From assembly GCF_900187355.1 (NCBI RefSeq), contig NZ_LT906451.1:2768001-2832000 (forward strand): a DNA stretch of 64,000 bases, in the 5' to 3' direction. Each line of letters begins with the position of its first letter. Position 1 is the first letter of the stretch. The position numbers and the translations under genes were made by a program. Positions 3 through 23,019 of this stretch are shown here, one piece after another. The notes under the pieces are model-generated. The model made no database searches and was not told the DNA's origin. It was given only the letters and a program-made list of their open reading frames with translations. Source of the DNA: Legionella lansingensis. GTDB lineage: Bacteria > Pseudomonadota > Gammaproteobacteria > Legionellales > Legionellaceae.

Positions 3-3000
3 CATGGCGAGATTTTAAAGCGCTTGGATGGGCAAAAAACAACACAGGCATTGCAAGTTGCTTATCAAAAGGGCTATCGAGCTATCGCCATTGTTCTTAT
101 GCATGGATATCGCTATCACCATCATGAAAAGCAGCTAAGAAAAATAGCTAAGCAAATCGGTTTCCAGCAAATTTCTGTCAGTCATGAAGTAGCTCCCGTG
201 ATGAAACTCGTTGGCCGTGGTGATACCACTGTTGTTGATGCCTATCTCTCGCCGGTCTTGCAACGTTATATCCAATCATTGCAAAAAACGCTAAAACATC
301 TCCCCTTATTATTCATGCAATCAAACGGGGGTCTTGCTGAAGCCCGATTTTTTAGAGGGAAAGAAAGTATTTTCTCAGGACCAGCTGCTGGCGTGATCGG
401 CATGGTTAAAACAAGCCAACTTGCCGGATTTAAGAAGGTCATTGGCTTTGATATGGGAGGCACATCGACAGATGTTTCTCATTTTGCTGGAGAGTATGAG
501 CGCAGTTACATTAGCGAATTTGCTGGCGTTCGGCTACAAACCCCTATGATGTTGATACATACTATTGCTGCAGGTGGCGGTTCCATCCTCCATTTTGATG
601 GTAGTCGCTATATTGTTGGTCCAGACTCAGCGGGTGCAAATCCTGGTCCCAGCTGCTATGGTCGAGACGGCCCACTGACCATTACTGACTGTAATGTAAT
701 AGTCGGTAAAATCCAAGCGGATTTTTTCCCCCAGGTGTTCGGCCCTCAAGGCGGTAAAGCCATCGATGTAGCCATCGTTCGTAAGAAATTTGCACAATTA
801 ACCGCCGAAATCAACCAGGCAACTGGAGGACAGCAAACACCAGAGCAAGTAGCTGAAGGTTACCTCCATATTGCTGTTGAAAACATGGCAAACGCTATCA
901 GACGAATTTCCGTGCAGCGTGGTTATGATGTCAGCCAATATTTGTTAAATTGTTTTGGGGCTGCCGCAGGTCAACATGCTTGCCTGGTTGCTGACAGGTT
1001 AGGGATAAAACGTATTTTGATTCATCCTCTAGCCGGTGTTCTATCCGCCTATGGTGTAGGTTTAGCTGAGCTCAGAATCCTAAAAGAATGCCCTATTGAA
1101 CAACCACTCAAACAAGCCATGGAAGCAGTGCTAAAGCTTAAATTAACAGAGCTAGAAGAGCAAAATCAAAACGCATTGCAAGCACAAGGGATGCAAACCG
1201 ACACAATGATCCACACCCGACGCATTCATCTTCGCTATGATGGCTCTGATACGATGCTAACGGTGGAATTTAGTGCGATTGCTTCGATGCGCAAAGCCTT
1301 TGCTTTAGAGCACCGCAGGCAATTTGGTTTTGCTTCTGCACAAAAAAGCTTAATCATTGAAGCTGTTTCAGTGGAGACAGTCCTTGCAACGCAAATGATT
1401 GTAGAAAAGGATTGTGATCTGGTTCACCGCCCTCAAAAAGAAATACCAGTCAGTAAGGTAGTATCACTGTTCAGCCATAGTCGCACCCATCAAGCACCCA
1501 TCTACCATCGTCAGGATTTACAACCAGGCGATTGTATTCAGGGCTGTGCTATCATCTGTGAAAACAATGCCACAACGATCATTGAACCCGGATGGCAAGC
1601 TCATGTCACGGAAAAAAATCACCTTCTATTAACGCGTTATCAACCTCTACCCAAACAAAAGATAACAAGAACCAGCGTTGATCCTGTCTTGCTCGAGGTT
1701 TTTAATAATCGTTTTATGAATATTGCCGAGCAAATGGGTGAAGTCTTACGGAATACAGCAAGTTCCGTCAATATTAAGGAGCGTCTGGATTTTTCCTGTG
1801 CGATTTTTGACAGCCAGGGAGAGCTGGTGGCCAACGCACCTCATATTCCGGTCCATCTTGGCTCCATGAGTGAGAGTGTTAAAAGTATCCTTAACGCAAC
1901 TACTCGCTTATTGCCGACTTCCCGCGGCTTGACCACGGGATCCAGCGAACTTGCCAGATCCATTGATCCCGCGGTCAAGCCGCGGGAAGTCGGCGATATA
2001 GATAGGGACAAGCAGTGTTTTACTACAATACGTCCAGGAGATGTCTATCTTTTGAATTCACCTTATGATGGCGGAACGCATTTGCCTGATCTCACCGTCA
2101 TCACCCCTGTTTTTTCCGAGAACAAACAGCAATTGCTATTCTTCCTGGGTTCTCGCGGCCATCATGCTGACATTGGCGGAATCACCCCAGGATCTTTACC
2201 TGCAAAGAGCAAAGTCATTGAGGAAGAAGGTGTGCTTATCAATCATTTTAAGGTCGTCGACCAGGGGCGATTTTTAGAAGCAGAGACGCTCAAGCTATTC
2301 ACCAAAGCCCGTTACCCGGCTCGCAATCCCAAACAAAATTTAGAGGATTTAAAAGCACAAATTGCGGCAAATGCCCGCGGAGTGCATGCACTATGGGATT
2401 TAATTGCGCAATTTGATTTGAAGGTGGTTCAAGCTTATATGAAGCATGTGCGCGATAATGCCACTTTGGCAGTTAGAAAATTATTAACCCGCCTTAAAGA
2501 TGGACATTTCTGTTACCATCTGGATGATGGTAGTGCAATTAAAGCTAGCATTACTATTGATAAAGCAAAGAAAGAAGCTTGTATCGACTTTACAGGCAGT
2601 GCTCCACAGCATGATGGAAATTTTAATGCACCGTTAGCTATCTCCAAAGCTGCTACGCTATATGTGCTACGTTGTTTAATTTATGAAAATATTCCTTTAA
2701 ACGGTGGTTGCTTTGTTCCTATCAAGATCATTGTGCCTCCTAGCAGTTTGTTAAACCCAGTTTATCCTGCCGCCGTTGTTGCCGGAAATGTTGAGACCTC
2801 CCAGTGCATTGTCGACACGTTGTTAGGAGCATTAGGTGCTGTTTCTGCATCACAAGGAACGTGCAATAATTTTACTTTCGGCAATGCTGAATACCAGTAT
2901 TATGAAACCATCTGTGGTGGTGCAGGAGCCGGACCGGGTTTTGCTGGCGCTTCCGCTGTTCATACGCATATGACCAATACTCACCTCACTGATCCTGAGG

Positions 3001-17597: not shown

Positions 17598-18563
17598 TTA
17601 ATCATACATCGGCCTAGCCCAAGGATCATCATAGCAAGTAATCGGTTCAGGTTTAGGACTTATGAAGGTCATGTTTTTTGTATAATAATGCATGTTAAAT
17701 ACATCTTCTGCTATGGAAATTGCCAGATCTCTCATAGTACTAGATTTTCCAAAAAATTGATTCATGGTTGATATATCACGCAATCCCCGTTGTTGCGCGA
17801 CAAAATAGGTCATAAATTCAGGGTGAGTTTGCGCTAGTTCCTCTGGGGTTTTATTAAACGGATTGTTATCACCTCCATGCCGATCATAAAATTGCAAATA
17901 GGCATTAACATGATTGCGTAAAGCAGTCTTCTCTTCCTGTTCATTTATTGCGTTATTGTATTTTCTTCGTAAAAGAGAAATATATTGCAGAAAGATTTCT
18001 CTAAATTCTTCCTTTGCTTCCAGATTATCAGCCTTCAAAGGAAGATAGAAGGGATTATTTATTTCCTTACCAGCTACAGTGATGCTTCTAATGCAACAAT
18101 GTAAAATTGCCAAGGCAGCATGCTCTACTTCACGCTGCATTCGTGCTGGAAAAGTTAACTGATTACTCTCATAAGTTTTATGTACATCAATAATGAAATC
18201 TCTAAATAAGGCAACATCAACGGTGATGAAACTTTCTTTGCTGCTCATTCCTTGCGCCACTTTTTGATTTTCTGACATACCAACCAGATGATAATCATTG
18301 GAATAATTCGTTGTTTTATGCAGTCTTACATCTTCCATTGTAATCGTTTCAGGGAAACATCTTCCAAAAATCCCTACAATAATGGTTGGGAAATCAAATA
18401 GAATGTCAGAAACTTCATCAAAGCCACGATAAAGCTCGGTAATATTTTCAGGGGTTGTGACAATATTTCTAAACATAATTACTGGGGACTCGGAAAAGGC
18501 ACTGTTACCTGATACTCGTTTTTCTGAAGGAGCAAATAAAGGACGAAACATGATATAACCCAA
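17598..18563 (-). CDS. Hypothetical protein, 321 aa
   Basis: Not recognised. Start could be ATG at 18563 or at 18551 (MFRPLFAPSEKR). Predominantly soluble with no signal peptide; one moderately hydrophobic stretch near LFDFPTIIVGIFGRC. The C-terminus carries the charged/proline tail FISPKPEPITCYDDPWARPMYD. Flanked by a ClC gene and by an AT-rich spacer. Size, isolation and lack of recognisable domains are compatible with a Legionella effector, but no secretion signal is demonstrable by eye. Confidence 0.7.
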   Translation of the reverse strand: MGYIMFRPLFAPSEKRVSGNSAFSESPVIMFRNIVTTPENITELYRGFDEVSDILFDFPTIIVGIFGRCFPETITMEDVRLHKTTNYSNDYHLVGMSENQKVAQGMSSKESFITVDVALFRDFIIDVHKTYESNQLTFPARMQREVEHAALAILHCCIRSITVAGKEINNPFYLPLKADNLEAKEEFREIFLQYISLLRRKYNNAINEQEEKTALRNHVNAYLQFYDRHGGDNNPFNKTPEELAQTHPEFMTYFVAQQRGLRDISTMNQFFGKSSTMRDLAISIAEDVFNMHYYTKNMTFISPKPEPITCYDDPWARPMYD

Positions 18564-18662
18564 TATGATTTTTTAAAGTCAAATTTAACATAAATGTGTC
18601 ATTTTTTTCAAATATTTTTCACTTACCTCCAATTTTCATAACGGCACTTGTCAACTAAACAG

Positions 18663-18691
18663 TTGCAAATTGAAGTCAGACTGTGTATAAA
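18663..18691 (+). promoter_or_regulatory. Sigma70 promoter for the leader peptide and brnQ
   Basis: TTGCAA (18663-18668), a 17-bp spacer and TATAAA (18686-18691) match the consensus in sequence and spacing. Transcription would start near 18698, giving an untranslated leader of about 208 nt before brnQ that contains the short frame at 18728. Confidence 0.65.
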
Positions 18692-18727
18692 GGATCTTGT
18701 TTGTAATATAAGAACTCAAAAAGATTA

Positions 18728-18853
18728 ATGAAAGCAGCCGCTAGTAATAAACATTCATCTTCCTTATTTCTAGGCTTTGACCGTCTAGCTTCAGGTCTCA
18801 TTCTTATTGTTGTCAGCGTCTTCGTGGTCAATGTGGCCTTCGTGGCCATCTAA
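18728..18853 (+). CDS. 41-codon leader peptide rich in Leu, Ile and Val upstream of brnQ
   Basis: ATG at 18728, stop TAA at 18851. The last 18 residues read LILIVVSVFVVNVAFVAI, and 12 of them are Leu, Ile or Val, encoded by consecutive codons shortly before the stop. It lies between a strong promoter and the gene for a branched-chain amino acid carrier, the usual position of an attenuation leader such as ilvB or ilvGMEDA. A small hairpin TGGCC-TTCGT-GGCCA (18834-18848) overlaps the last codons. No terminator with a U-run is obvious downstream. The hydrophobic tail could alternatively make this a small membrane protein. Confidence 0.6.
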   Translation: MKAAASNKHSSSLFLGFDRLASGLILIVVSVFVVNVAFVAI

Positions 18854-18905
18854 CTCTTACCTCACAATTTTTCCAAATCCACCATTACAGACCCAGGAAT
18901 AGACC

Positions 18906-20048
18906 ATGCAACAATACAAATCCATTTTTATTTACGGCTTCGCTATTTTTGCGATGTTTTTTGGTTCAGGAAATTTAGTTTTCCCTTTGCAGATTGGAAA
19001 AGCAGCTGGCGATAGCTGGTTGATCGGATTTATCGGTCTTTTACTTACAGGTATATTCTTGCCTTTGACCGGTTTGTTCGTTATCAAACTGTATCAGGGC
19101 AATTATCGCGCTTTCTTTGGAGAGGCTGGCAAGGTTGCATCGTTTTTATTGCCCCTTTTTATGCTTTCTCTATTAGGCTCCTTTGGTGTTGTTCCTCGTT
19201 GTATTACTGTAGCTTATGGTAGCTTTGCTTATTTGTTACCCCAAATCAAGCTCATTCACTTTAGCACTCTTTTCTGCGCCATCACGTTTTTCTTTTGCCT
19301 GAATGATAGAGTCATGATCAAGCTTTTAGGTAAGTGGATGAGTCCTATTTTGCTTGTAACGCTTATCATTTTGATTGTCATTGCAGCGATTAAAGCACCA
19401 CATACGCTTGTACATACCCATACTGATAAGGCTTTTACCTATGGCTTTATCACAGGTTATCAAACCATGGATCTCTTTGCCGCCTTCTTCTTTTCCGCTC
19501 TCATTTTTACGCAAATACAACAGTCTTTACCCAATTCCAATCCGCGCGAAGTTCTGGTTTTTGCGCTAAAATCCAGTGTTCTTGGGGCTTCTTTGTTAGC
19601 TCTCATCTATCTAGGATTTGTTTTTCTTGGCTCTCATTATTCATCGTTAATTAGTGTGCGTGCACCGGAGCTCATGCTACCTGCCATTGCCAAAGTGGCC
19701 ATGGGTCATTCAGCCACACTCTTTATAGGTATCGCGATGTTTCTCTCTTGCTTGACCACGGCTGTTGCCTTGAACAATCTTTATGCACGCTATCTTTGTT
19801 CGACCTTAAAAATAAAAGATGACAAATTTTATTTAGTTTTATTGTTTACAACTTGCTTATCTTTTATCATTTCTTTATTGGATTTTAAGGGCATCGCCGC
19901 TTTCATTGCCCCAATCCTTGAGTTGACCTATCCAGGGATCATTGCGTTAACGATAATGGCAATCGTCATTAAGGGACGACAACCATTTAAAAAGGCAGTG
20001 TTTTATGTTATGACAGTACTCATGTGCCTACCTCTCGCAATGCATTAG
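18906..20048 (+). CDS. brnQ: Branched-chain amino acid carrier BrnQ (LIVCS family)
   Basis: 380 aa, inner-membrane cation-coupled symporter for Leu, Ile and Val. The family signature is near the N-terminus: IYGFAIFAMFFGSGNLVFPLQIG (in two stretches, about 10-32). There are about 11-12 hydrophobic segments. Usual family members are 430-440 aa; this one is shorter but has both ends. AGGAA lies 7 bases before the ATG. The upstream leader region suggests control by branched-chain amino acid supply. Confidence 0.9.
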   Translation: MQQYKSIFIYGFAIFAMFFGSGNLVFPLQIGKAAGDSWLIGFIGLLLTGIFLPLTGLFVIKLYQGNYRAFFGEAGKVASFLLPLFMLSLLGSFGVVPRCITVAYGSFAYLLPQIKLIHFSTLFCAITFFFCLNDRVMIKLLGKWMSPILLVTLIILIVIAAIKAPHTLVHTHTDKAFTYGFITGYQTMDLFAAFFFSALIFTQIQQSLPNSNPREVLVFALKSSVLGASLLALIYLGFVFLGSHYSSLISVRAPELMLPAIAKVAMGHSATLFIGIAMFLSCLTTAVALNNLYARYLCSTLKIKDDKFYLVLLFTTCLSFIISLLDFKGIAAFIAPILELTYPGIIALTIMAIVIKGRQPFKKAVFYVMTVLMCLPLAMH

Positions 20049-20072: not shown

Positions 20073-20720
20073 ATGGCTTTGTTTTTTGCAAGAGATTTTG
20101 CTAAAGAATTCGACTCTCTGACCCCTCAATTGGCCGCATTAAAGGAACGCTTCAATGTGGCAGCACAAACCCAACGAGAACAAGAGCACGAGCAACAAGC
20201 AAAGGCTTTCAGTGATGCAGCAAACGATATTGATACCATTATTAGTAATTATCGGAGGTATTTAATTAATAGTGGTAGCTCCTTCCGCAAAGAAAGCCTG
20301 CTTAAAGAATACGAAGAACTTATCCAGTGTCTGCAAAATGTCGCTGACAATCCTCGAGAGTATAATGCTTCTGATCTTATTGAAAGAATAACCCTAGATA
20401 ACCAATACTTGCCCTGTGATGAAATTGCCACTCGTATTTTTAATGCTCTTACTGCTTTATTTTGGCTGGGGGTGGCCGTGGTAGGCTCTATAGCAGGGAT
20501 TCTCTCACTGTCAACAGTTCCAGCAGATACAATAGGGGGGGTAGTTGCTACCGGAATTTGTGTAGGTCTCGTGACGTACGCTTCTATTGAAATGATTGAT
20601 AATCTTTGCCAAGTATTCGAACCTCATCATACGTTTACCAATACGAGAGAAATAAACGACAATGAATTAACTTTATTGGGGCATGTACATGAGGCCTATG
20701 GTATTGCACCAACGATGTGA
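20073..20720 (+). CDS. Hypothetical membrane-hairpin protein, 215 aa
   Basis: Not recognised. Residues about 8-60 are charged and likely coiled coil (ALKERFNVAAQTQREQEHEQ). Two closely spaced hydrophobic stretches (about 127-148 and 152-172: LFWLGVAVVGSIAGILSL and GGVVATGICVGLVTYAS) form a probable membrane hairpin. This layout recalls membrane-inserting effectors of intracellular bacteria, which is inference only. It has AAGGAG before the ATG and begins 24 bp after brnQ, so co-transcription is possible. Confidence 0.7.
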   Translation: MALFFARDFAKEFDSLTPQLAALKERFNVAAQTQREQEHEQQAKAFSDAANDIDTIISNYRRYLINSGSSFRKESLLKEYEELIQCLQNVADNPREYNASDLIERITLDNQYLPCDEIATRIFNALTALFWLGVAVVGSIAGILSLSTVPADTIGGVVATGICVGLVTYASIEMIDNLCQVFEPHHTFTNTREINDNELTLLGHVHEAYGIAPTM

Positions 20721-20743
20721 TCAGTTGAGAGCACGCTGCCGCG

Positions 20744-20826
20744 ATTCCGAATCCCCGCGGCATCGACCGCGAGGTCCATCATGTCAGTCTGGACATGGAT
20801 ACCGCGGTCAAGCCGCGGTAATTCGA
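20744..20826 (-). repeat. Palindromic element flanking typA, left copy
   Basis: About 83 bp with CCGCGG-based arms (ATCCCCGCGGCATCGACCGCG ending in TACCGCGGTCAAGCCGCGGT). The sequence is the reverse complement of the copy at 22880-22960 with few differences, including the central CATCATGTCAGTCTGGA. It belongs to the same family as the elements at 1911 and 50603. Confidence 0.85.
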
Positions 20827-20996
20827 GCAGAAAAAATCCTTACCATAATGGCAGTAACCCCCGAGGCCCCCGTTCTGCTTAGCTCTGAATAGGAATTCAT
20901 CACCAATCAAGGTATAATGGTGCATCCATAACATAGATTTAACTTCACTCTCTGAAGCGATATAGCTCCTGCTTCACGCCCAAGATAGGTCCTTTT

Positions 20997-22817
20997 ATGA
21001 TTGAAAAAATTCGTAATATTGCCATTATCGCTCATGTCGATCATGGTAAAACCACTTTAGTTGATAAGTTATTGCAGCAAACTGGCACGTTAAGTGAACG
21101 TGCGCCAAAAGTAGAACGCGTGATGGATTCTAACGCGCTAGAGAAAGAACGAGGAATCACCATTCTTGCCAAAAACACTTGTGTACATTGGCATGGGTAT
21201 CAAATCAATATCGTTGATACCCCAGGGCATGCTGATTTTGGTGGCGAAGTTGAGCGTATCTTATCCATGGTCGATAGCGTACTACTCTTGGTAGATGCTG
21301 TTGATGGCCCCATGCCGCAGACCCGTTTTGTTACACAAAAAGCCTTTGCCCGCGGCCTAAACCCTATCGTTGTTATCAATAAAATTGATAGACCTGGTGC
21401 TAGAGCGCATTGGGTAATGGATCAAGTCTTTGATTTATTTGATAATTTAGGAGCAACAGACGAGCAGCTTGATTTTCCTGTTGTGTATACATCTGCTTTA
21501 CAGGGTTATGCCAAGCTTGATTTGGACGATGAAGCACATGACATGGCTCCTTTATTACAAACCATTGTTGACAGAGTGGCACCACCTCCTGTCGATGAGG
21601 AAGGTCCGTTTCAAATGCAAATCAGTTCTTTGGATTATTCTTCCTATGTTGGGACGATTGGCATTGGTCGTGTCACCAGAGGACATATTAAAGCTAAATC
21701 TGCGGTCAAGATTATTGACAAAGAAGGCAATGTTCGCAGTGGTCGTTTATTGCAATTACTTGGCTTTAGAGGTTTAGAGCGGGTAGAGGTTGAAGAAGCC
21801 AGAGCCGGTGACATTATTGCCATCACTGGCATTGAGCAACTTAATATTTCCGATACCTTATGTGACCCTAATCATGTGGAAGGCTTACCACCATTAATGG
21901 TGGATGAACCGACCATCAGCATGATTTTCCAAGTCAATGACTCCCCTTTTGCAGGTCAAGAGGGAAAATTTGTGACTAGCCGAAAAGTTCGCGAACGTTT
22001 ACAAACTGAATTATTGCATAATGTGGCGCTGCGCGTAGAAGACACTGAGGATCCTGATAAGTTTAGAGTGTCTGGTCGCGGAGAATTACACTTATCCATT
22101 TTAATCGAAAATATGCGCCGAGAAGGCTATGAACTTGCTATCTGCAAGCCAGAAGTCATCTTAAAAGAAGAGAGTGGTGAACAACAGGAACCCTATGAAC
22201 GGTTAACTGTCGATGTTGAGGAGAATCATCAGGGCACGATTATGGAAAAATTAGGTGAGCGGCGTGGTGAGTTACAAAACATGTTGCCTGATGGTAAAGG
22301 CCGGGTCCGCCTCGACTACGTTATTCCTACCCGTGGTTTGATAGGTTTTCACACTGAATTTTTATCCAGCACATCTGGTACTGGCTTGATGTATCATGTC
22401 TATGACCATTATGGTCCTGCAATTCGTGGTCGCATTGGCAAGAGAAACAATGGGGTTCTGATAGCCAATTGTCAGGGTGCAGCACGAGCTTTTGCCTTAT
22501 TTAACTTACAGGAACGTGGTCGTTTATTTATTGAACCACAAACCGTTTGTTATGAAGGAATGATTGTTGGTATTCATGCTCGTGACAATGACCTGGTGGT
22601 CAATGTCACCAAGGAAAAGCAATTAACCAATATTCGTGCAGCCGGCAGCGACGAAAATATTTTGCTAACACCACCGATTAAATTATCTTTGGAGCAAGCA
22701 TTGGAGTTCATTGACGATGATGAGCTTGTTGAGGTCACGCCACAATCCATTCGTTTACGCAAGAAAGCGTTAAAAGAGCATGAGCGGAAGCGCGCCTCGA
22801 AGATTAGCGATGATTGA
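20997..22817 (+). CDS. typA: Ribosome-associated GTPase TypA/BipA
   Basis: 606 aa translational GTPase of the EF-G class, used for ribosome assembly and stress or low-temperature growth. G1 is AHVDHGKTT (12-20), G3 [11 protein letters not shown]4 NKIDRPGAR. BipA-specific domains follow: [45 protein letters not shown] and the C-terminal domain with [16 protein letters not shown]. Normal length. It is a single gene between two inverted copies of a palindromic repeat. Confidence 0.97.
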
Positions 22818-22879
22818 CATATGAGAATGTTATAGAATAGGTTCGGGTAGGGCACACTATCACTAAGTTAAGGATTTTT

Positions 22880-22960
22880 TCGAATTACCGCGGCTTGACC
22901 GCGGTATCCATTCCAGACTGACATGATGGACCCCCGCGGTCGATACCGCGGAGATTCGAA
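22880..22960 (+). repeat. Palindromic element flanking typA, right copy
   Basis: TTCGAATTACCGCGGCTTGA at the left and ATACCGCGGAGATTCGAA at the right, with internal CCAGACTGACATGATGGA. It is inverted relative to 20744-20826, so the typA gene is bracketed by inverted repeats about 2 kb apart. Confidence 0.85.
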
Positions 22961-23019
22961 ATCGCTTAACTTAATGGTGGTGAGAGCAGAGCACGAAGTT
23001 AACTCACTAATCACACATC

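What the first reader, a model, noticed from the sequence alone, without database searches (positions are those of the whole stretch)
18663..18905. Unannotated attenuator-like leader peptide ahead of brnQ
A consensus promoter is followed by a 41-codon frame whose last 18 codons include 12 for Leu, Ile or Val, then by a branched-chain amino acid carrier gene. Leader-peptide control is well known for ilv biosynthesis operons but less so for transporters. It could also be a small membrane protein.
Basis: partly seen in the sequence, partly recalled or inferred. Interest (0 to 1): 0.75.

Follow-up and report, generated by a model that had tools for sequence, protein, structure and literature searches.

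The report
Valine-sensing leader controlling brnQ importer
Ahead of an amino-acid importer gene in a Legionella relative lies a short, valine-rich leader gene ending in a conserved RNA hairpin, and its codons can base-pair with the importer's start site, so a ribosome stalled for lack of valine, leucine or isoleucine would be expected to switch the importer on.

Summary
In detail: extended -10 promoter (18663-18691), 41-codon ORF (18728-18853) with 12 Leu/Ile/Val among its last 18 codons, then brnQ (18906-20048). The peptide itself is not conserved. What is conserved is an architecture: a Val/Ile-rich codon run leading into a GC-rich hairpin that carries or abuts the leader's stop codon (GUGGCC-N5-GGCC, with compensated variants). 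It precedes brnQ in 17 of the 18 genus genomes that have the gene and recurs, with other stems, before brnQ relatives in alphaproteobacterial endosymbionts, Chlamydiae and one Babeliales MAG. The genus lacks ilvC (0 of 22), so uptake probably replaces synthesis. No intrinsic terminator was found here. Instead the control codons pair with brnQ's Shine-Dalgarno/start region. Stalling on the Leu/Ile/Val run lowers the predicted cost of opening the start site from 12.9 to 5.5-8.0 kcal/mol; a ribosome at the stop codon does not. I favour translational attenuation; Rho-dependent attenuation remains open. Closest precedent: the actinobacterial LEU element. The pairing is statistically supported over 56 loci, but not in every one, and only weakly within Legionellaceae as a group.

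The parts
18663..18691 (+). promoter: TTGCAA - 17 nt - TATAAA with extended TGTG
   Evidence: pattern found in 16 of 17 genus loci, TATAAG variant in the 17th by eye
18728..18853 (+). leader ORF, 41 codons, stop TAA 18851-18853
   Evidence: counterpart ORFs in relatives, N-terminus not conserved
18797..18835 (+). control codons 24-36 (LILIVVSVFVVNV)
   Evidence: 10 of these 13 codons are Leu/Ile/Val; in-frame bias across loci
18805..18829 (+). part of the control-codon run that pairs with the brnQ start region (18890-18916)
   Evidence: MFE pairs with probabilities 0.37-1.00 in the fold of 18758-18930; in the fold from 18698 bases 18805-18807 pair elsewhere and the start-region pairing begins at 18808; duplex -21.2 against mean -13.0 kcal/mol for synonymous randomisations, 0 of 100 as strong
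18833..18849 (+). stop-codon hairpin GUGGCC-UUCGU-GGCCAU; its 5' arm begins with the last control codon (Val36), the stop codon follows its 3' arm
18854..18887 (+). G-free linker (C 0.35, G 0.00)
   Evidence: the only one of 46 gene upstream regions (-52..-18) in the window with G <= 0.03, and the only one with C minus G >= 0.30
18895..18899 (+). brnQ Shine-Dalgarno-like AGGAA
   Evidence: partly paired with the leader in the predicted fold
18906..20048 (+). brnQ, branched-chain amino acid carrier (380 aa)
   Evidence: PF05525 E 2.3e-59; TIGR00796 203 bits, under its cut-off of 243

Best explanation
A cis-acting, ribosome-read leader that makes brnQ expression depend on charged Val/Leu/Ile tRNA, most likely at translation initiation. 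In the free transcript, or after a ribosome has finished the leader and left, leader codons 26-34 pair with the brnQ Shine-Dalgarno, start codon and codons 2-4, and the stop-codon hairpin sits inside that fold: brnQ is off. When Val, Leu or Ile is scarce a ribosome waits on the control codons, removes one strand of that pairing (and opens the hairpin), and brnQ is translated. SHOWN: the leader, codon bias, conserved hairpin over the stop, conserved promoter sequence, no terminator found, no ilvC found. SUPPORTED BY STATISTICS: pairing of control codons with the start region. INFERRED: transcription start, real translation of the leader, stalling, direction of the response, and the hairpin's role (re-forming element, or a pause signal that keeps RNA polymerase and ribosome in step).
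For: Architecture in 17 of the 18 genus genomes with brnQ, all 17 model hits lying just upstream of brnQ; in the 4 genomes without brnQ the best E is 0.25. 83 of 205 brnQ-like loci score above the 99% point of 1025 shuffles (near-duplicates included). Non-circular hairpin and codon tests on 144 loci. 18 different inner-stem sequences among 58 non-redundant loci; covariation score 0.183 against 0.143 shuffled, reached by 0 of 500 (40 of those 58). Native pairing of the control run (-30..+2 of the hairpin) with the start region (-22..+14) beats pairings between loci, p = 0.0001, while windows -60..-35, 15..40 and 40..65 of brnQ give p 0.68, 0.53 and 0.13 with that same run (56 loci). Against synonymous codon randomisation: duplex z -0.62 +/- 0.16, gain in start-site opening z 0.67 +/- 0.21. 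At this locus: opening cost 12.9 free; 5.5-8.0 with the A site on codons 24-37; 9.3-9.7 on codons 38-39; 12.9-14.1 on codons 40, 41 and the stop. ilvC absent in 22 of 22 genus genomes, the control found in 14 of 14.
Against: Pairing is not universal: the median gain is 0.6 kcal/mol, and L010, L014, L015, L043, L230 and others show none or the reverse. Within Legionellaceae (18 loci) the pairing is not significant at the best overall window (p = 0.07) and is so only for the stretch -60..-35 (p 0.0002-0.013 in three of 40 windows); the synonymous test there gives 0.47 +/- 0.28. Many windows were scanned (42, 40 per group) and a few cells meant as controls also reached low p: A(-75..-50) and A(-60..-35) with brnQ 30..50 (0.001, 0.009), A(-35..-10) with 40..65 (0.004). 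Two of the five covariation measures were reached by 23 and 28 of 500 shuffles. The conserved hairpin is not explained by the pairing alone. The leader has no strong Shine-Dalgarno of its own (by eye). The linker composition also suits Rho. No expression data.
Confidence: 0.55

Rival explanations
1. Rho-dependent attenuation: once the leader ribosome leaves, Rho loads on the C-rich, G-free linker and ends transcription in early brnQ; a stalled ribosome or a translated brnQ prevents it. This could also be layered on translational control, as for topAI of E. coli.
For: Linker C 0.35, G 0.00, unique among 46 gene upstream regions in the window; G 0-8% in the 18 non-redundant Legionellaceae linkers; the uORF-controlled topAI combines translational repression with Rho termination (PMC12121999, passages).
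Against: The linker is only 34 nt and a ribosome stalled upstream would not cover it; the composition may simply keep the loop unpaired; it does not predict the pairing of control codons with the start region.
Confidence: 0.22
2. Leader translation serves re-initiation or coupling only: ribosomes ending at the leader stop start again at brnQ.
For: Leader and brnQ are close (52 nt between stop and ATG); re-initiation at leader genes has been proposed (PMC4833913, abstract).
Against: That abstract puts the frequency peak at 10-11 bp in Actinobacteria, with a like peak in Proteobacteria; here the gap is about 50 nt, and over 100 nt in several loci. It explains neither the Val/Ile bias nor the hairpin.
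Confidence: 0.06
3. Classical transcription attenuation with an intrinsic terminator.
For: Three distant loci of the set (L086 and L099 in Chlamydiae, L095 in Opitutia) show by eye a leader with Ile-rich codons and a strong hairpin followed by a T run; L044 and L151 have a terminator by my rule.
Against: One search lists no terminator between the window's leader and brnQ; none in 56 of 58 selected non-redundant loci (L086, L099 and L095 were not in that selection).
Confidence: 0.04
4. A small membrane protein.
For: Hydrophobic C-terminal half of the window peptide.
Against: N-terminus and length differ between species (15 to about 60 aa); the hairpin loop codons change amino acid while the GGCC arms stay.
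Confidence: 0.03
5. The palindrome TGGCC-N5-GGCCA is a DNA-binding site for a regulator.
For: It is an inverted repeat on DNA.
Against: The arms change together (GGUC/GACC, GUCCC/GGGAC, UGGCAG/CUGCCA, GCGC/GCGC) and the site stays tied to the leader's stop codon.
Confidence: 0.04

Closest known systems
LEU element upstream of leuA in Actinobacteria (PMC1262725; passages read)
   Same: Leader ORF with a run of codons for the branched-chain amino acid; [quoted passage not shown] no classical attenuator.
   Different: There: leuA (biosynthesis), leucine, a conserved pseudoknot. Here: a transporter, mainly valine, a small stop-codon hairpin. That paper cites evidence that Leu-codon mutations do not influence regulation and prefers a protein-binding site.
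Classical ribosome-mediated attenuators of ilv operons (recalled; ilvB-II of Corynebacterium, PMC10272879, abstract and outline seen)
   Same: Val/Ile/Leu-rich leader peptide.
   Different: They control biosynthesis operons by transcription attenuation; no terminator or antiterminator was found here.
topAI/toiL uORF of E. coli (PMC12121999; passages read)
   Same: uORF whose stalled ribosomes relieve translational repression of the next gene; a Rho layer on top.
   Different: Senses ribosome-targeting antibiotics rather than one amino-acid group.
Translational attenuators of erm/cat genes and of rtpA (recalled, not looked up)
   Same: A stalled leader ribosome frees the next gene's ribosome-binding site.
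   Different: Drug-sensing or tryptophan-sensing; different RNA anatomy.

Membership tests
Ribosome-read leader-peptide regulation | short ORF upstream with codons of the amino acid that the gene handles | tested here: met
Ribosome-read leader-peptide regulation | codon bias conserved while the peptide is not | tested here: met
Ribosome-read leader-peptide regulation | leader is translated and ribosomes stall on starvation | not testable with these tools
   no ribosome profiling at hand
Classical transcription attenuator | intrinsic terminator before the gene | tested here: not met
   none between leader and brnQ; 2 of 58 selected non-redundant loci have one
Classical transcription attenuator | antiterminator competing with the terminator | tested here: not met
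   no terminator found to compete with
Translational attenuator (codon run / start-site pairing) | the next gene's start site is sequestered by a stretch that a stalled leader ribosome covers | tested here: inconclusive
   strong at this locus, significant over the 56-locus set, absent in several loci; prediction only
LEU element | control-codon run pairs with the downstream Shine-Dalgarno box | tested here: met
   as a prediction only:
LEU element | leuA of Actinobacteria | tested here: not met
   gene is brnQ, lineages differ
LEU element | conserved pseudoknot | not tested
   no pseudoknot search was made
Rho-dependent attenuator | C-rich, G-poor Rho loading region and Rho dependence | tested here: inconclusive
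   composition met; Rho dependence not testable
Any Rfam 15 family | match to a covariance model | tested here: not met
   0 matches in the window at gathering score; 0 with E <= 1 in 18600-18960; in 11 related loci only a tRNA at gathering score

The most novel reading that the evidence does not exclude
A broadly distributed, undescribed RNA element specific to brnQ-type importers of intracellular bacteria: control codons that sense valine/isoleucine double as the strand that masks the importer's start site, with a stop-codon hairpin as a conserved third part. It has moved with the importer between bacterial classes and replaces the ilv attenuator in organisms that lost synthesis.
Probability: 0.35. 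Interest if true: 0.75.

Novelty: new variant of a known kind. Interest (0 to 1): 0.62.

Why it matters
It suggests how auxotrophic intracellular bacteria could sense host supply of branched-chain amino acids without a dedicated regulator: the attenuator idea has moved from synthesis to import. It also offers dozens of natural variants in which codon run, start-site pairing and stop-codon hairpin can be taken apart, a direct test of the unresolved LEU-element idea that control codons mask the start site.

Tried and rejected
Classical attenuator: no terminator found. Folding 18698-18905 alone: not unusual (z -0.07). Rfam: nothing. C/U-rich linker as an anti-Shine-Dalgarno strand: pairing no better than between loci (mean z +0.28 +/- 0.13, 61 loci). 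The same element elsewhere in the genome: the GTGGCC-N5-GGCC pattern has 4 places in the own genome, all on one strand, against 1 and 2 for the reversed control (the other three places were not looked at further); the covariance model finds only brnQ below E = 0.2 in 22 genomes, but it scored only 150 of the 288-540 first-look candidates per genome, so absence elsewhere is not complete. Pairing of the hairpin's 3' arm with the linker: looked for by eye in the window locus only, none seen.

Numbers that weaken the case: 122 of 205 loci lie below the 99% shuffle point. Many are distant relatives without a visible leader, a few are partial matches whose 'upstream' is coding; some show a leader and hairpin by eye (L040, L042, L069, L072, L105-L107, L109-L111, L113, L114). 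The 205 include copies of one species from two collections. Relatives were sampled, not exhausted: one search kept 80 of 157, and searches give at most 30 new loci each (in one search, 118 of 147 genomes matched). One search used 40 of the 58 sequences; I left out 18 with divergent stems or near-duplicates, and some rows are misaligned in the loop. Hairpins were found by a rule that seeks pairing, so alone is not independent proof; one search is. In some searches I dropped by hand first duplicates and false hairpins (two lists of 5 and 9 ids) and then 13 near-duplicate ids. The output was cut.

Full report
Setting. The finding sits between a divergent gene on the minus strand (17598-18563, similar to Lart1) and brnQ (18906-20048, PF05525).

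Observation. All stated elements are present: a promoter with 17-nt spacing, a 41-codon ORF and 12 of 18 terminal codons for Leu, Ile or Val. The promoter pattern is found in 16 of 17 genus loci. The seventeenth, L017 (L. fairfieldensis), keeps a promoter variant but has lost the whole leader, so that brnQ follows the promoter closely (by eye).

What is conserved. brnQ occurs in 18 of 22 genomes of the genus and 32 of 143 of the family. Upstream of it the peptide N-termini are unrelated, but the codon run and its end are not: GTGGCC-N5-GGCC, with the stop right behind or in the loop. The five loop bases change amino acids freely while the arms stay, so selection is on the nucleic acid rather than on the peptide. 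The 5' arm begins with the last Val or Ile codon.

Beyond Legionella. A scan of named genomes (80 of 157 relatives kept) and searches of four orders (at most 30 loci each) gave brnQ relatives in Rickettsiales, Paracaedibacteraceae and other alphaproteobacterial endosymbionts, Chlamydiae and single MAGs of other groups. Many carry the same architecture with other stems: GUGGCU/AGCCAC, GGUC/GACC, GUCGG/CCGAC, GUCCC/GGGAC, GUGCGC/GCGCAC, and UGGCAG/CUGCCA after Ile codons in Chlamydiae. Of 205 loci scanned (6 further ones dropped for a broken frame at the match start), 108 exceed the 95% and 83 the 99% point of 1025 shuffled upstream regions; the other 122 are described under Tried and rejected. 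Two tests avoid circularity (144 loci sharing no upstream 25-mer). Choosing ORFs by Leu/Ile/Val content alone, 38 of 89 have a strong hairpin at the stop against 4 of 484 in shuffles. Choosing by hairpin alone (44 of 144 loci, 25 of 1440 shuffles), Leu/Ile/Val is 5.45 per 10 codons in the leader's frame, 3.32 and 0.93 in the others, 2.84 in the shuffled cases. The codons there are mainly Val (129), Ile (73) and, less, Leu (38). Among 58 non-redundant loci there are 18 different inner stems. On a 40-sequence alignment 90.9% of cells pair and the covariation score (0.183 against 0.143) exceeds all 500 shuffles; two weaker measures were reached by 23 and 28 of 500.

A protein tree places the 30 rows assigned to Legionellaceae in one supported clade (98) inside a group made mostly of alphaproteobacterial sequences (145 rows, quick method, midpoint root). 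Transfer of importer plus leader between classes is a likely reading, not a proof.

Specificity. A covariance model searched in 22 genus genomes hits just upstream of brnQ in 17 of the 18 genomes with the gene (E 5.8e-6 to 0.04). It lists nothing else below E = 0.2, and in the 4 genomes without brnQ the best E is 0.25. Most of these loci were in the model, so the informative part is the lack of other places, with the limit that only 150 candidates per genome were scored. ilvC is missing in 22 of 22 genus genomes while the control rang in 14 of 14: the genus very probably cannot make these amino acids by the usual route and must import them.

Mechanism. One search lists no intrinsic terminator between the window's leader and brnQ, and my rule finds none in 56 of 58 selected non-redundant loci; L044 and L151 may have one. 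I then asked what the leader could pair with. A first look gave mean z -0.47 +/- 0.15 for leader run against start region (61 loci). Across 56 loci the stretch -30..+2 relative to the hairpin pairs with -22..+14 of the same locus's brnQ better than with that of other loci (mean gain 1.98 kcal/mol after removing row and column means, p = 0.0001). With that same stretch the windows -60..-35, -40..-18, 15..40 and 40..65 of brnQ show nothing (p 0.13 to 0.68), though a few control cells with other stretches reach p 0.001-0.009. Synonymous randomisation of the leader, which keeps the peptide and draws on the gene's codon usage, gives z -0.62 +/- 0.16 for the duplex and 0.67 +/- 0.21 for the drop in start-site opening cost caused by a stalled ribosome. 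In the window locus the duplex is -21.2 against a mean of -13.0 kcal/mol (0 of 100 as strong) and the opening drop is 5.5 against 1.6 (1 of 100 as large). The predicted fold of 18758-18930 pairs leader bases 18805-18829 with 18890-18916, which contain AGGAA, ATG and codons 2-4. In the fold from 18698 the pairing runs from 18808, and leader bases 18809-18812 (codons 28-29) pair with 18909-18912 (codons 2-3) with probability 0.99. Walking a ribosome over the leader, the opening cost is 12.2-13.3 before the control run (10.6 at Gly23), 5.5-8.0 with the A site on codons 24 to 37, 9.3-9.7 on codons 38 and 39, and 12.9-14.1 on Ala40, Ile41 and the stop. The codons that free the start site thus coincide with the Leu/Ile/Val run, which is what a starvation switch needs.

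Limits. The pairing is not seen in every locus: several close relatives (L010, L014, L015) show none or the reverse, the median gain is 0.6 kcal/mol, and within the 18 Legionellaceae loci the group tests are weak (p = 0.07 at the main window; p 0.0002-0.013 only for the stretch -60..-35, three of 40 windows; synonymous z 0.47 +/- 0.28). Related species may use different strands, or the shared principle may be another. The G-free, C-rich linker, unique among 46 gene upstream regions in the window, is what Rho likes, but also what an unpaired loop needs. The hairpin's own role is inferred: it can only form when no ribosome stands at the leader's end, so it could be a re-forming element or a pause signal.

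Comparison with print. The nearest match found is the LEU element of actinobacterial leuA, where a Leu-codon run was predicted to pair with the Shine-Dalgarno box (PMC1262725, passages). That paper also notes leader peptides without terminators before mycobacterial cys operons and suggests Rho. topAI (PMC12121999, passages) joins uORF-controlled translation with Rho termination. ilvB-II (PMC10272879, abstract and outline) is a BCAA-rich uORF on a synthesis operon. An alphaproteobacterial ilvB leader peptide is mentioned in PMC1273637 (one passage). In S. aureus the attenuator is on ilv while brnQ1 is described as CodY-regulated (PMC5794164, passages). Searches of the held library for brnQ or BCAA leaders in Legionella, Rickettsia or Chlamydia (plus 44, 64, 65) listed no paper whose title or shown abstract describes this element; subscription papers are not held, so this is not proof of absence.

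Verdict. A real regulatory leader that I found described nowhere. Probability about 0.85 that it is ribosome-read amino-acid control of brnQ, about 0.55 that translation initiation is the main step controlled. New variant of a known kind.

Noticed in passing
window 17598-18563, minus strand: Gene similar to the Lart1 NAD(+)-arginine ADP-ribosyltransferase family (NCBIfam 356 bits, under the curated cut-off of 500), divergently oriented to brnQ.
   Followed up: no
window 20741-20855 and 22856-22965: Long inverted repeats (four arm pairs of 21-34 nt, 81-100% complementary, themselves rich in CCGCGG palindromes) about 2 kb apart, on either side of a large GTPase-like ORF (20997-22817; TypA/BipA is my recall).
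   Followed up: partly
window 20073-20720: Gene after brnQ with a weak SLATT_5-like match (21.1 bits, below the cut-off of 29.5).
   Followed up: no
L086, L099, L196, L197 (Chlamydiae): A second leader type before brnQ relatives, ending WRCGPM, TRCESM, TRCGPM or TRCGPVL; L086 and L099 show by eye a strong hairpin with a T run, like a classical attenuator.
   Followed up: partly
L095 (Opitutia): Ile/Thr-rich leader before a brnQ relative, followed by eye by a hairpin with a T run.
   Followed up: no
L017 (G006, L. fairfieldensis): Leader and hairpin lost, promoter variant retained close before brnQ: a natural leaderless case.
   Followed up: partly
L080 / G021:C280 (L. tunisiensis): brnQ is broken (in-frame stops and split matches) although its leader is present; could be decay or an assembly error.
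   Followed up: no
L076: A 14-bp hairpin (by eye) with the leader's stop codon in its loop and no T run behind it, far longer than the usual 4-8 bp stem.
   Followed up: no
L048, L050: A much longer linker (133 nt in L048, G 0.21) between the leader hairpin and brnQ, yet in L048 the strongest leader/start-site pairing of the set (-30.3 kcal/mol).
   Followed up: partly
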